DNA of 64,000 bases from Gemmatimonadota bacterium (lineage in GTDB: Bacteria > Gemmatimonadota > Gemmatimonadetes > Gemmatimonadales > Gemmatimonadaceae). The stretch spans positions 248,001 to 312,000 of the forward strand of contig JAQBQB010000025.1 in assembly GCA_028287235.1 (NCBI GenBank), in the 5' to 3' direction. The translations under genes were made by a program, and so were the position numbers. How positions within the stretch are numbered: the first letter of the stretch is position 1; every line of letters begins with the position of its first letter. Below, one piece after another: positions 35,824 through 41,274 of the stretch. The notes beneath the pieces were generated by a model. The model saw only the letters and a program-made list of their open reading frames with translations. It was not told where the DNA came from and made no database searches.

Positions 35824-36225
35824 ATGCTGCCGTTCGTCATTCGCGCGGAACAAATGCGCACGCTCCGCGCTCCGTTTCTCGCCGGTTTCGTCGACGACGC
35901 GCGTCAGCATGCCCAACGCCGGCATCCCGATGTCGTCGCGACCATGGGCGACGACGGTCTGGACACCCATGTCCGCGACGCGATCGCCGAAGCCGTGAAC
36001 TATGATCTGGTGAGCAAGCGCGACGTGCTGCGGTACCTCAGCCTGACGCTGACCTTTGGTCTGCGGTGGCGCGACTCACCCGATCGACGCTGGATGCACG
36101 AAGCGATGTCCGCCGGCGCGCCAACGCCGTCGGTGCGAGGCGGAAGCGCACGGTTGCACGCGCTGTATCGGGAGGTGCTCGCGCGGCTGTCGCGGAACGA
36201 GATCGCGGATAGAGCCGGCGCGTGA
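35824..36225 (+). CDS. Small alpha-helical protein heading the NTase-caspase operon
   Basis: The 133-residue, mostly helical, soluble protein begins MLPFVIRAEQMRTLRAPFLAG and contains VRDAIAEAVNYDLVSKRDVLRYLSL. This layout (IR.eqm..L...F...., then I..a..Y.l.S.rDv..yl.l...lG) is like small proteins I recall encoded beside secreted or type VI-type effectors, but I cannot name a domain with certainty. Its TGA overlaps the GTG of the next gene as GTGA, so it is co-translated with it. An adaptor or chaperone role is speculation. Confidence 0.6.
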   Translation: MLPFVIRAEQMRTLRAPFLAGFVDDARQHAQRRHPDVVATMGDDGLDTHVRDAIAEAVNYDLVSKRDVLRYLSLTLTFGLRWRDSPDRRWMHEAMSAGAPTPSVRGGSARLHALYREVLARLSRNEIADRAGA

Positions 36226-37511
36226 AGCTCGGACAGGAAACGGATGTCGATCCGCGGCTCGCGTCGCTGGTCGCCGCCGACGATGCCACGGCCGAAGAAA
36301 GCGCGGCCGATGCGATCGTCCTGCCGTGCGGCGCCGCCGTGCCGCAGCTCGAGCTCAAACTGCTCGTCTGGAACGTGCGCGAGCTGGGAGGCGGCTTTCA
36401 CATGCCGCGCGTTCGACCAGACCATTGCATCGACGGGTATGCGGCGTTGATCGCGGCGCTCGGCGCCGACGTCTGCGTCGTCACCGGGCTGCGTGCCGCG
36501 CCGGCGCGGCTCGTCACGTCGGAAGGCGGCGTGTTGAAATACGCCGACGAAGACGTTGACACCGGTGTGGCGGAGGCGAAGCGATTGCTCGCGTCGCTCA
36601 AGAAGGCGGCCGCCGCGGGCGACTGGGCCATGGGTGTGCCTTCCGACGCCAAGGATGCCATCGTCTACGAAGGAGGCACGACGACGGCCGTGCTCTATCA
36701 AAGAGCAGGCGGACGCAAGCTGCTCTCCCTCGACGTGGTGAACGGGCGCGCCGATGCGACGCTCGGCGTGGGCGGCCATCTCGTGCGTCTGTCGCTCGAG
36801 CTGCCGCTCGAGGGCGAGAGTCCCCTGACGCTCGATCTCCTCGCGCCGCTTGGCGCGTCCGCCGTGACGGGCGAGAAGGCACCGGCCGTTACGGCGACGC
36901 TACCGGCGTCGTTCGTGCTCGCGTTTTCCGCGGACGACGACCTGGCGTCCAATCGCGGTCCGCTCGACGCCGTGCAGTCCGCCGTGAGCGCGGACTCGCG
37001 TCCGTTGCTCGGTCACGGCTCGGTGCTGGGCGATTCGTTCTGGCAGACGACGACGCGAGAGCGAGGTTCGCTGCTCACCGACTATACGGCGGTGAGCGCG
37101 GCCGACGTCGATCAACAGGACGACGAGATGCACTGGGAAGCGTTGCCCGACCCAAAGCATCCGAAGGCAGCCAGCGACGTCGCGGGATCGCTCGGCGACG
37201 CGGTGCTGGTGCGCAATGCGGAGCCGCGGGCGCGCTATGCGGTGCGGGAGCTGCGCGTCGTCGACATGATGCGCGCGGCGCTGACGGCCGACGAGATTGC
37301 CGATGCCGGCGGCGAAGGCGCCGCGGCCGATGAGGACAATTCGCTGGCCGGCCTGCGCGCCGCACATCGGGCGGCGACGCCGTATCTGAGCGATACCGCG
37401 CCAACGACTCCGCAGAACATCGTCGCGGAGTGCGCCGATTTTCTGCATCTTCTCTCCGACCACTGGCCGGTGCTGGCCACGTTCGTGGTTCGCGCACCAG
37501 CCGAGCATTGA
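36222..37511 (+). CDS. Degenerate endonuclease/exonuclease/phosphatase (DNase I-like) fold protein
   Basis: The 429-residue protein begins with a short acidic leader, then the strand LKLLVWNVRELGGG (WN at 50-51), a helix DGYAALIAALGADVCVVTGL, a strand TTTAVLYQR, the strand FVLAFSADDDLASNRG (231-246), and SDHWPVLATF (412-421). The order matches the EEP superfamily. WN and SDH are kept, but the catalytic Glu of the usual LQE motif is replaced (VVTGL) and the usual GDFN reads FSAD. It is therefore probably catalytically impaired or has a changed metal site. It starts with GTG overlapping the previous stop and lies 10 nt before the 1250-residue gene, so it likely acts with that protein. Confidence 0.6.
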   Translation: MKLGQETDVDPRLASLVAADDATAEESAADAIVLPCGAAVPQLELKLLVWNVRELGGGFHMPRVRPDHCIDGYAALIAALGADVCVVTGLRAAPARLVTSEGGVLKYADEDVDTGVAEAKRLLASLKKAAAAGDWAMGVPSDAKDAIVYEGGTTTAVLYQRAGGRKLLSLDVVNGRADATLGVGGHLVRLSLELPLEGESPLTLDLLAPLGASAVTGEKAPAVTATLPASFVLAFSADDDLASNRGPLDAVQSAVSADSRPLLGHGSVLGDSFWQTTTRERGSLLTDYTAVSAADVDQQDDEMHWEALPDPKHPKAASDVAGSLGDAVLVRNAEPRARYAVRELRVVDMMRAALTADEIADAGGEGAAADEDNSLAGLRAAHRAATPYLSDTAPTTPQNIVAECADFLHLLSDHWPVLATFVVRAPAEH

Positions 37512-37521
37512 TGACTGACGT

Positions 37522-40500
37522 ATGCCTGTAGAAGATCCGTTCAATCGCATGGCGATCATCGCCGGGCGTCGCAAGGCGCAATCGGTGGTGTTCCCGACGC
37601 AGGGCGACGGCGCGATGATGTGGAAGGCGACCGCGGTGCATCCACTGCAGCCGATGCAGAACGTCCATCAGCGGTTGGTGCGCGACGCGCTCGGCAGCAT
37701 GACCGCGGTGGACCTTCGCGACGAAGACAAGAGGCAGGCCGCGGAGACCGCCGTCCTCGAGAGGTATTTCGTCGCGGATTCCGTGGAGCCGGCGCTGTAC
37801 GGCGAGGCGAAGAATGCGCCGCCGGTGTACGTCGATCAGGACTTGGACGTCGCCAAGCAGAAGCTCAAGAAGTTGGTCGCGCTCGCCGCGGCCGCCGTGG
37901 CGCACGCGCCGCCGGCCGATCCGGTGCCGGGTTTTCAGACGGAGTTGAACGCGGTCGTCGCCGCGTTGGAGACGGTGCGTGCCCATTTTACGCGGGCCGA
38001 GCCGGTGCTTCCGGACAACGTGGTGCGCGTGGTGCCGCCTACGCTCATCGCCATCGACACGGTGGTCGCCGCGGAAAAGGCGAAGATTGCCGGGCTCACC
38101 ACCGCCGCCGGCGTCGACACGATGGCGAAGAAGCTCGCCAAGGACGCGGCGAAAGCGTACGACGAAGTGCTGATCGGGTTCTGCTCGATCCAGATGATGC
38201 ACAACATCGAGCCGTTCTATCTCTTTCGGCTGATGGTCAAGTTCCGCATCGATTCGAACAACGTGCTCCTTCCGCGAATCCGCAAGGAAGTGAGCGGCGA
38301 GCTGACCGGTCTGCTCAACAACGCGCAGCAGTGGACCTTCGACTGGCTGAGCGCGCAGATCAAGGATCTCGACGCCGCGCTCAAGGTCATCGATCCGGGC
38401 GCGAAGAACCTGTTGTTCTTTCTGAAGGGCGGACGGGCGCTCAAGTATCTCGAGGGCGATGCGTTCGCCGGCGAGAACGACTGGGACACGCAGGTGGTGA
38501 TCAATCCGGAGCTGCCGCTCGACGAGTGGTACGAGATGCTACGCAAGGTGCACAACGTGGTCATCGCGAAACTCAAGTTCTACAAGTTGGGTTTCTACCA
38601 GCTCGTGCACCAATACTCGGCTGCGTTTCACGTCGATCTGAATACGCCGCTCTCCGTCGCGACGCTCCCCGCGGCGGTCGCGGTGCCGGCCGATCCGGCG
38701 TACAAGATGAACTGCAAGGCCGAGCTGATCGACATCGGCATTCCGCGTTGCGACACGGTCGAAGCCTTCGAGCAGTGGGTGCAGATGAAAGGCAAGATCG
38801 AGACGATGGAAGGCGTTCCACTGCCCGGATTCATCTACTACATCAATGAGTATGTGCTGATGATCCGCGAAGCGTTTGCCGAAACGTCGATCTCGATCGG
38901 CAAAACGCCGAAGCGGACGGCGCGACTCTTCGGCATTCTGGGTATCGACGACATTGCCGAAGTGGCGACGGCGGAGCGGGGGCGTATTCCAGCCGCCGCG
39001 GTGCCGAAGGCGTTGGCGGCGATCGGCACCCTGGCGGCCGACACGTCGAAGCGCGTGTTCACGGTGCTCGTGCGCCAGTTCGCCACGGGTTACGACTTGG
39101 CGAACGATCCGGGATTTGCCGCGGCGTTCGACGGGGTCGTCCATGCCGAAAAGGGGAACATGGCGACGAAGGCCTCGTACCCCGCGGCGCTCACCGACGC
39201 GATCACCGCCGACAAGCGCAAGGCGGATACGAAGTGGATCGACGCGGACCACCAGCCGCTCTGCGACGTGATCGGCTTCGGGAACTATCTCTCGCAGCAG
39301 TGCGAGGCGCATCTGAAGGCACGCAGCGCGTTCTTTCTGAAGCAGCGCAAGGTCATCGGCGGATTGATCAAGGCCGTGTACACCGCGTCGGTGGTCAACC
39401 CCGACGAAGAGTTGCAGATCCAGCTCGCCGTCACGGGCAATTTCGCCGCGTTTCTCCACGCGCACTATCTCGGCAAGCTCACGGACGATCCGGACGAAAC
39501 CTCGACCGCGAAGCGATTGGGGTACGACGCGATGCAGGATTCGATCATCAAGGCCTTTCACGACAAGGTCGGGCTGGTCGACGTGATCGACGTGACGATC
39601 TATTGCTGGAAGAAGGAGTACCTGCCGGACGTCGTGCTCGAGGCGGTCGTGCTTCCGCACCTGCATGCCTACGCCGCCAATCCGAAAACGCCGCTGTTCG
39701 ACATCCAACCAGGCCCCGAGGGATCGGGGTCGGTGTACGTCTTCTGGCCGCAGGCCGAGGCGCTCGCACCGTTCAACTACAAGCCGGTCGTCGTGCGGTT
39801 CACCGTCGACCGGCATCCGGCGCGCTGGCCGCAGCTATCGTTCATCTGGGGCTATCCGGTGTTGGGGATGAGAGATCTCATCAACGACTTTCACCGGCGC
39901 TGCGCGCACGTCGACGAGTTCGGTGCTCAGCAGCGGCTGAAGAAGACGTCCGCCGCGCTCGTCGAGATGATGACGCACTACGAGTATCCGGTGTCGGGCG
40001 GCCACGCCGCCGACGCCGGCGCCCCCGCGACGGTGCTGGCGATGCCGCCGGACCGGGCGGTCGCGACGAACGCGACGATCGCCGCCATCACGGCGGGCAC
40101 CTGCCACCACCTGATGATCAGCAGCGTGCAGCAAGCCAACGGCGACGCGGGTGTCTATCCAGTGGCGATGGCCGCCGACCGCCAACACCTCGTCACGCTT
40201 CCGAAGCCGGCCAAGGCGTCGGACATCAAGGGCACGCTCACGATTGCCGCCGACGTGAGCAAGAATCGCACGCTCGATCTGCTCGTCGTCAACCAGGGTC
40301 ATGGCGACCTGAATGATTTCGCCGGCTGGTCCAGCGCAACGCTCAAAGCGAACGTCGTCGATCCGCTGGTGGCCGCCGGCGTCAAGGCGAGCACGATCGT
40401 GCTCGACACCTGCCTATCCGCCTCGCTCGTCTCGGCGTTCGCGCCCCTCTGTGCCGACGGAGGCAAGATCTATTGCACCGCGTACAGCACGACGGGGCTC

Positions 40501-41274
40501 ATCGTCACGCCCGATGTGTGGACGAGCATCGACGGGGAGCTCACGGCGCGCGATGTGCCTGCGATCCGTGCGAAGCTCGTTGCGCGAATGACGTGGCTCT
40601 CGCGCGACGCCACGGCGTTCGTGAACGTGCCGGCGCTCCAGGTGCCGGGCGCTCCGGGGTCGATCTACGCGAGCGACGTGGTGGGAACTCGGGCCGGCGC
40701 GAGGGACCGGATCTCCATCGTGCGGTACCTCCCGCAGATCGCGGCGGCGCTCGATATGGACGACGACGCGCTCCCCGCCGCGTACTGGCCGGCGCTCAAC
40801 GAGGTGAAAGGCCTGCCACTCCTCGGCGATGCCGAGACGTGGGTTCTCGGAAGCCTCACGCCGACGGCCCGGATGTTTGGATTTCCGCAGCTCGACGGAG
40901 TCAAGCGCGAGTTTCGGAAGCGCGTCGTCGACATTCTCACGAATCCGACGTACGGAATCTCGCTCGCCCCAGGTACGCTGACCGACAAAAGCAACGTGGG
41001 TCGCGACAGCGTCTGGACGGAGCTTGCCTCGCGCCTCCGCACGGTGTTGCACGGTGTCGCCGGCTTTGCGATCTGTCCTACCTGTTTCGCCGCCTACGAC
41101 CCGGCGACGAAGAAGCTCGACGTCGACTCGCTTCTCACCGCCGACCTGCCGCCCCGCAACAAGAAGTTCGTCGACGCCATCTTTCCAAACTCCAGCGCCG
41201 AGCTCGCGCCGATGCGCGCCGCCCTCGCGAAGGATTCGATCACGCTGGATCCGAAAGCCAACTACCTGCAGTGA
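37522..41274 (+). CDS. Large multidomain protein: nucleotidyltransferase-like plus caspase-like (clan CD) domains
   Basis: The 1250-residue protein has no signal peptide or membrane helices. An N-terminal helical part (1-290) is followed by a Pol-beta/MNT-type nucleotidyltransferase signature: LLFFLKGGRALKYLEGD with GG at 303-304, DWDTQV with acids at 320 and 322, and a third candidate acid Asp404 in AELIDIGIP. A middle alpha/beta region (about 600-860) is unassigned. At 918-970 a caspase-like core appears: LLVVNQGHGD (His927) and STIVLDTCLSAS (Asp962, Cys964), with a following strand KIYCTAYST. The C-terminus (970-1250) is helical and contains CPTC (1185-1188). I know of no named family. Activity of both domains is inference from motifs. 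Confidence 0.65.
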   Translation: MPVEDPFNRMAIIAGRRKAQSVVFPTQGDGAMMWKATAVHPLQPMQNVHQRLVRDALGSMTAVDLRDEDKRQAAETAVLERYFVADSVEPALYGEAKNAPPVYVDQDLDVAKQKLKKLVALAAAAVAHAPPADPVPGFQTELNAVVAALETVRAHFTRAEPVLPDNVVRVVPPTLIAIDTVVAAEKAKIAGLTTAAGVDTMAKKLAKDAAKAYDEVLIGFCSIQMMHNIEPFYLFRLMVKFRIDSNNVLLPRIRKEVSGELTGLLNNAQQWTFDWLSAQIKDLDAALKVIDPGAKNLLFFLKGGRALKYLEGDAFAGENDWDTQVVINPELPLDEWYEMLRKVHNVVIAKLKFYKLGFYQLVHQYSAAFHVDLNTPLSVATLPAAVAVPADPAYKMNCKAELIDIGIPRCDTVEAFEQWVQMKGKIETMEGVPLPGFIYYINEYVLMIREAFAETSISIGKTPKRTARLFGILGIDDIAEVATAERGRIPAAAVPKALAAIGTLAADTSKRVFTVLVRQFATGYDLANDPGFAAAFDGVVHAEKGNMATKASYPAALTDAITADKRKADTKWIDADHQPLCDVIGFGNYLSQQCEAHLKARSAFFLKQRKVIGGLIKAVYTASVVNPDEELQIQLAVTGNFAAFLHAHYLGKLTDDPDETSTAKRLGYDAMQDSIIKAFHDKVGLVDVIDVTIYCWKKEYLPDVVLEAVVLPHLHAYAANPKTPLFDIQPGPEGSGSVYVFWPQAEALAPFNYKPVVVRFTVDRHPARWPQLSFIWGYPVLGMRDLINDFHRRCAHVDEFGAQQRLKKTSAALVEMMTHYEYPVSGGHAADAGAPATVLAMPPDRAVATNATIAAITAGTCHHLMISSVQQANGDAGVYPVAMAADRQHLVTLPKPAKASDIKGTLTIAADVSKNRTLDLLVVNQGHGDLNDFAGWSSATLKANVVDPLVAAGVKASTIVLDTCLSASLVSAFAPLCADGGKIYCTAYSTTGLIVTPDVWTSIDGELTARDVPAIRAKLVARMTWLSRDATAFVNVPALQVPGAPGSIYASDVVGTRAGARDRISIVRYLPQIAAALDMDDDALPAAYWPALNEVKGLPLLGDAETWVLGSLTPTARMFGFPQLDGVKREFRKRVVDILTNPTYGISLAPGTLTDKSNVGRDSVWTELASRLRTVLHGVAGFAICPTCFAAYDPATKKLDVDSLLTADLPPRNKKFVDAIFPNSSAELAPMRAALAKDSITLDPKANYLQ

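What the first reader, a model, noticed from the sequence alone, without database searches (positions are those of the whole stretch)
40280..40430. Caspase-like His-Cys core in the same chain
LLVVNQGHGD (His927) and 35 residues later STIVLDTCLSAS (Cys964 after Asp962) fit the clan CD pattern (beta-strand, HG; beta-strand, DxC). A protease in the same polypeptide as a nucleotidyltransferase would be a strong hint of a signal-activated or self-processing enzyme.
Basis: partly seen in the sequence, partly recalled or inferred. Interest (0 to 1): 0.7.

Follow-up and report, generated by a model that had tools for sequence, protein, structure and literature searches.

The report
T6SS-linked caspase-like plus nucleotidyltransferase protein
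A large, previously unclassified bacterial protein carries both a nucleotide-transferring active site and a caspase-type cysteine-protease active site, and in a sister genome its genes sit beside a type VI secretion (molecular syringe) cluster, so it is probably an injected weapon that cuts itself or its target, although no activity has been shown.

Summary
ORF 37522-41274 (+, 1250 aa) carries LLVVNQGH927G and, 37 residues on, TIVLD962TC964; the strict pattern appears in 10 of 20,000 shuffles. A GG-x15-DxD nucleotidyltransferase core lies in the same chain. The catalytic letters are kept in the only orthologue of the phylum sample (64%, G003). In five Azospirillum homologues both active sites are lost, yet the caspase core stays the best conserved part. 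No Pfam, NCBIfam, PHROGs, PADLOC or PDB sequence match exists. Low-confidence two-sequence AlphaFold models give the clan-CD order (strand-His-helix-strand-Cys); their best but weak structural matches are C80/CHAT/C11 proteases and, for a smaller crop, the T6SS cysteine-protease effector Tce1 (Z 5-6, inconclusive). The gene ends a three-gene cassette that in G003 follows TssF-TssG-ClpV-VgrG-DUF4280-DUF4123. Among six same-genus genomes only the two with T6SS carry it. Best reading: a T6SS-associated two-enzyme effector with a caspase-like autoprocessing or toxic domain. Protease core and context are supported; signal activation and self-cleavage are not shown. New variant of a known kind; interest moderate to high.

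The parts
35824..36225 (+). Gene A, 133 aa, small protein of a family that accompanies other putative effectors
   Evidence: Conserved in G003 (55%); relatives in G300, G325 and G003 contig C15; one directly upstream of a CarboxypepD_reg + PAD protein
36222..37511 (+). Gene B, 429 aa, EEP-like (endonuclease/exonuclease/phosphatase) by motif only, with the usual Glu replaced
   Evidence: LLVWNVREL and SDHWPVLATF motifs; 72% identical in G003; no profile or PDB match. Start overlaps the stop of A
37522..41274 (+). Gene C, 1250 aa: nucleotidyltransferase plus caspase-like protein
   Evidence: Full-length orthologue in G003 and homologues in Azospirillum
38413..38511 (+). Nucleotidyltransferase core, aa 298-330 (G303 G304 ... 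D320 x D322)
   Evidence: Kept in G003 and Sinorhizobium, lost in Azospirillum
38731..38733 (+). D404, likely third acid of the nucleotidyltransferase (ELIDIG)
   Evidence: Asp in all members but one Glu; role inferred
40072..40551 (+). Caspase-like domain, about aa 851-1010
   Evidence: Best conserved stretch with Azospirillum (aa 915-970 54%); predicted strand-His-helix-strand-Cys-helix-strand
40300..40302 (+). His927
   Evidence: His in G003, Ser in five Azospirillum homologues
40411..40413 (+). Cys964
   Evidence: Cys in G003, Pro in five Azospirillum homologues
40552..41271 (+). C-terminal region, aa 1011-1250, fastest evolving part
   Evidence: dN 0.51, dS 1.11 versus 0.20-0.32 and 0.82-0.89 elsewhere

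Best explanation
Gene C is a large two-enzyme protein that belongs to a type VI secretion effector cassette (A-B-C). Its N-terminal half holds a nucleotidyltransferase that would attach a nucleotide to a target molecule or make a nucleotide product. Its internal caspase-like domain is a His/Cys peptidase of the clan CD kind, working like the C80-type autoprocessing domains and the T6SS effector Tce1. Proposed mechanism: A is a loading or partner protein; C is carried by the VgrG/PAAR-like/DUF4123 spike; in the target cell the caspase-like domain becomes active and cuts the chain, releasing the nucleotidyltransferase half and/or the variable C-terminus, or cleaves target proteins itself. Shown: the two cores, their conservation in the one orthologue, the cassette, the T6SS neighbourhood in G003 and the co-occurrence. 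Inferred: the fold, secretion, activation, cleavage and the target.
For: His/Cys motif beyond chance and kept in the orthologue. Cassette directly downstream of TssF-TssG-ClpV-VgrG-DUF4280-SPOR-FCEECE-DUF4123 in G003. TssC and DUF4123 in exactly the two cassette carriers of six same-genus genomes, TssC in 51 of 390 phylum genomes. Relatives of gene A precede other putative effectors. Caspase-like domains are known as releasing peptidases or toxins in polymorphic toxins including T6SS ones (PMC3482391).
Against: Models have mean pLDDT 39 and 47 and Z under 8, within the range the tool calls common; the second model's other rows are unrelated folds. No profile matches. In the window itself the cassette is an orphan, on another contig than the T6SS core. 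Co-occurrence rests on two genomes (1 in 15 by chance). No recognised immunity gene. Azospirillum homologues lack both active sites and lie beside R-body genes, not T6SS genes.
Confidence: 0.5

Rival explanations
1. It is an intracellular conflict or defence system and not a secreted effector. The nucleotidyltransferase makes a nucleotide signal when triggered, the caspase-like domain in the same chain is the signal-activated executioner, and the EEP-like protein B controls or degrades the signal.
For: Nucleotidyltransferase and caspase-like cores in one chain; weak structural neighbours include SAVED-CHAT and TPR-CHAT, which act downstream of nucleic-acid or nucleotide signals; orphan location in the window; sparse distribution as for defence genes.
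Against: No PADLOC match; T6SS adjacency in G003 and co-occurrence; no sensor or phage-defence neighbours seen.
Confidence: 0.18
2. The domain is an alpha/beta (Rossmann-like) domain with no protease activity, and the His-Gly and Asp-x-Cys letters are incidental. The protein acts as a nucleotidyltransferase with a structural C-terminal half.
For: Five Azospirillum homologues keep the core (54% identity over aa 915-970) without His or Cys; Foldseek finds no significant clan CD match; most rows of the second VIA-align list are other alpha/beta folds. Retention in one orthologue at 64% identity is weak evidence.
Against: Strict motif in 10 of 20,000 shuffles; both letters lie at the ends of consecutive predicted strands; clan CD rows dominate the top of the first VIA-align list; in Azospirillum the nucleotidyltransferase acids are lost too, as expected if a whole enzyme pair was switched off.
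Confidence: 0.22
3. The family's basic role is tied to R-bodies, as an assembly partner or payload, and the T6SS neighbourhood in G003 is a coincidence.
For: Five of five Azospirillum plasmid homologues lie just downstream of six RebB genes and genes whose sizes fit HP1.2 and HP1.1 of R-body synteny group 1 (PMC3583457).
Against: No RebB found in the window's genus, though that search had no positive control. Gene A relatives accompany other putative effectors. The Azospirillum copies have lost both active sites.
Confidence: 0.08

Closest known systems
Tce1 of Pseudomonas aeruginosa (H3-T6SS putative cysteine protease effector, PDB 9qpe; PMC13323088)
   Same: T6SS association, His/Cys dyad of the TcdB-CPD kind as described in the paper; first structural row for the 176-aa crop, Z 5.9, rmsd 4.3, 139 aligned
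   Different: Tce1 is 310 aa with no nucleotidyltransferase; 9% identity; Z is within the noise range; here the protein is 1250 aa
Peptidase family C80 (autoprocessing cysteine protease domains of MARTX and large clostridial toxins)
   Same: Internal His/Cys peptidase next to a transferase-type enzyme in a large protein; top rows of the first structural list (3eeb Z 5.6, 7d5y 5.5, 3gcd 5.2, 8yjc 5.2)
   Different: No Pfam match; inositol hexakisphosphate site not examined; a nucleotidyltransferase in place of a glucosyltransferase
CHAT proteases (TPR-CHAT/Craspase, SAVED-CHAT)
   Same: Clan CD; weak structural neighbours (8tl0 Z 5.5, 8d9f 4.9); SAVED-CHAT couples nucleotide signalling to a caspase-like enzyme
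   Different: No TPR, SAVED or CRISPR partner found; nucleotidyltransferase in the same chain; no profile match
Caspase-like releasing peptidases of polymorphic toxins (PMC3482391)
   Same: Internal caspase-like domain, variable C-terminus, secretion-system context; catalytically dead versions are known there
   Different: No recognised toxin domain, repeats or immunity gene; a nucleotidyltransferase lies N-terminal to the peptidase

Membership tests
Clan CD (caspase-like) peptidases | Hydrophobic strand followed by His-Gly, then hydrophobic strand followed by x-Cys | tested here: met
   LLVVNQGHG and TIVLDTC; 10 of 20,000 shuffles
Clan CD (caspase-like) peptidases | Strand-His-helix-strand-Cys order in consecutive strands | tested here: met
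   DSSP on both models, core blocks at pLDDT about 52-73, overall low confidence
Clan CD (caspase-like) peptidases | Overall fold match to solved clan CD structures | tested here: inconclusive
   10 of top 12 rows for model 1 but Z 4.8-5.6; model 2 gives Tce1 first, then unrelated folds; Foldseek not significant
Clan CD (caspase-like) peptidases | Conservation of the His/Cys dyad among homologues | tested here: inconclusive
   Kept in G003; Ser and Pro in five Azospirillum homologues; domain absent in Sinorhizobium
Clan CD (caspase-like) peptidases | Cys-dependent proteolysis | not testable with these tools
   Needs expression and a C964A control
Named clan CD peptidase families with Pfam or NCBIfam models (C80, C14, C11, CHAT and others) | Match to the family's profile HMM | tested here: not met
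   No such match for P0001, P0003 or the isolated domain
Peptidase family C80 | Inositol hexakisphosphate-binding basic site and beta-flap | not tested
   No reliable model
Nucleotidyltransferase superfamily | G[GS] ... DxD motif and a third acid | tested here: met
   G303 G304 D320 D322 D404 kept in G003 and Sinorhizobium
Nucleotidyltransferase superfamily | Match to a known nucleotidyltransferase profile or structure | tested here: not met
   No profile match and no PDB sequence match; fold not predicted
Type VI secretion effector | Encoded within or next to T6SS genes | tested here: met
   Met in G003; in the window itself the cassette is an orphan
Type VI secretion effector | Presence limited to T6SS-positive genomes | tested here: inconclusive
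   2 of 2 carriers positive, 4 of 4 same-genus non-carriers negative; only two genomes
Type VI secretion effector | T6SS-dependent secretion, cognate immunity | not testable with these tools
   No recognised immunity protein; secretion needs an experiment
Known anti-phage defence systems | Match to a PADLOC protein model | tested here: not met
   Only a chance-level hit of B to BrxA, E 0.019

The most novel reading that the evidence does not exclude
A new family of delivery-linked proteins in which a nucleotidyltransferase and a caspase-like protease share one chain, used by two unrelated delivery devices (type VI secretion and R-bodies), with a catalytically intact form beside the one and a doubly dead pseudo-enzyme form beside the other; the Azospirillum gene would then be a candidate for the missing R-body partner.
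Probability: 0.2. Interest if true: 0.85.

Novelty: new variant of a known kind. Interest (0 to 1): 0.6.

Why it matters
If true, it adds a protein family without a profile in four libraries to the arsenal of secreted effectors, and couples a nucleotide-transferring enzyme to a caspase-like peptidase in one chain. The homologues beside R-body genes give a concrete partner hypothesis for R-bodies, whose accompanying toxin is still unknown (PMC3583457). It also offers a natural comparison of an intact and a doubly dead version of the same protein.

Tried and rejected
Two genome-contig scans and three viral-contig scans found no relatives; phage records none. P0002 and gene A have no plasmid relatives. 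The NPCBM hit at the caspase region (E 0.013-0.049, below its cut-off) and the carrier-protein, antibody and phage-lysin hits of the profiles in the PDB are chance level. Foldseek hits to dehydrogenases, hydroxymethyltransferases and the like are generic alpha/beta matches to low-confidence models. Metacaspases, gingipains and separase do not appear in the VIA-align lists; that does not exclude them. The Sinorhizobium upstream gene and the Azospirillum 358-aa gene are unrelated. No long repeats were found within either flank of the cassette in the window (the two flanks were not compared with each other).

Full report
Observation. The frame 37522-41274 (+) encodes 1250 aa without a break. The strict motif occurs in 10 of 20,000 shuffles and once in the six frames of the window.

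The gene is real and under selection. One other genome of the genus, G003, holds a full-length orthologue at 64% identity, with dN and dS of 0.29 and 0.90. The part after the caspase-like domain evolves fastest (0.51 and 1.11). Only these two have it among 395 phylum genomes and among 179 family genomes.

Cassette. A (133 aa), B (429 aa) and C are tightly packed: B starts inside the stop codon of A, and C starts 10 bases after B. All three are conserved in the same order in G003, at about 75% nucleotide identity over the alignable blocks, and the surroundings differ. B has motifs of the endonuclease/exonuclease/phosphatase fold, but with the usual Glu replaced; this reading rests on motifs only.

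Type VI context. In G003 the genes before the cassette are TssF, TssG, ClpV, VgrG, a DUF4280 (PAAR-like) protein, a SPOR protein, a small FCEECE protein and DUF4123, then one antisense gene. TssC and DUF4123 occur in exactly the two cassette carriers among six same-genus genomes, and TssC in 51 of 390 genomes of the phylum. In the window's genome the VgrG-DUF4280-SPOR string lies at the end of contig C8, FCEECE and DUF4123 lie on C11 beside transposase-like and integrase-like fragments, and the cassette lies on C30; it is an orphan module there. Relatives of A occur in other T6SS-positive genomes: in G325 one directly precedes a CarboxypepD_reg plus protein-arginine deiminase protein (PF03068, E 2.8e-72), and in G003 contig C15 one precedes a prealbumin-like protein and a LysM-like protein with an HExxH motif (LysM and HExxH read by eye).

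Distant relatives. tblastn of plasmids found five Azospirillum homologues, three of them over at least 80% of the query, at 26-28% identity, and two Sinorhizobium americanum homologues of the nucleotidyltransferase half only. The Azospirillum genes lie downstream of six RebB R-body genes and of genes whose sizes fit HP1.2 and HP1.1 of R-body synteny group 1, which the literature reports on the A. brasilense plasmid. In all five, D320 and D322 of the nucleotidyltransferase are lost, His927 is Ser and Cys964 is Pro. Yet aa 915-970 is 54% identical in the TSH58 copy, well above the whole-protein level. These five are one lineage, so the joint loss is a single observation.

Structure. With only two sequences allowed, AlphaFold gave mean pLDDT 39 (413 aa) and 47 (176 aa), but the same core order: strand, His, helix, strand, Cys, helix, strand, with blocks mostly at 52-73. 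By the tool's own note, Z under 8 may be only a common arrangement, so this is suggestive and not proof. Tce1 is described as a T6SS putative cysteine protease with a TcdB-like dyad.

Mechanism. The best-supported picture is a T6SS-associated effector with two catalytic modules. In polymorphic toxins an internal caspase-like domain is usually a releasing peptidase and a C-terminal one a toxin. Here it is internal, with about 240 fast-evolving residues behind it, which favours processing. Activation, cut site and target are unknown. The main rivals are a signal-activated intracellular conflict system and a non-catalytic alpha/beta domain.

Known or new. No profile library recognises any part of C. 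Its parts work like known things, so it is called a new variant of a known kind. Membership in C80, CHAT or another named peptidase family is not claimed, because no family profile matches.

Noticed in passing
L005-L009 (Azospirillum plasmids), e.g. L005 7857-11378: Homologues of gene C with both active sites lost lie directly downstream of six RebB R-body genes on five plasmids, a possible undescribed R-body partner.
   Followed up: partly
L006 7872-12995: One Azospirillum homologue carries about 530 extra C-terminal residues with no family match, where other strains have a separate opposite-strand gene; this could mean C-terminal module exchange.
   Followed up: no
L004 9208-10260 (-): Between DUF4123 and the cassette in G003 lies an antisense gene with zinc-ribbon-like and endonuclease-like motifs (by eye) and no family match, perhaps another effector.
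   Followed up: no
L037 8631-11160 (G325): A gene A relative directly precedes a CarboxypepD_reg plus protein-arginine deiminase (PF03068) protein in a T6SS-positive genome, a possible deiminase effector.
   Followed up: partly
L039 6141-8814 (-) (G003 contig C15): A second gene A relative precedes a prealbumin-like protein and a 647-aa protein with a LysM-like start and an HExxH motif, which looks like another effector module.
   Followed up: partly
L010 6092-9872 (Sinorhizobium americanum plasmid C): A nucleotidyltransferase-only relative (876 aa, motif intact) follows a 392-aa protein with no family match; its context is unexplained.
   Followed up: no
window 36222-37511: The EEP-like protein B lacks the usual metal-binding Glu but keeps the SDH motif, so it may be a pseudo-enzyme or a regulator.
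   Followed up: no
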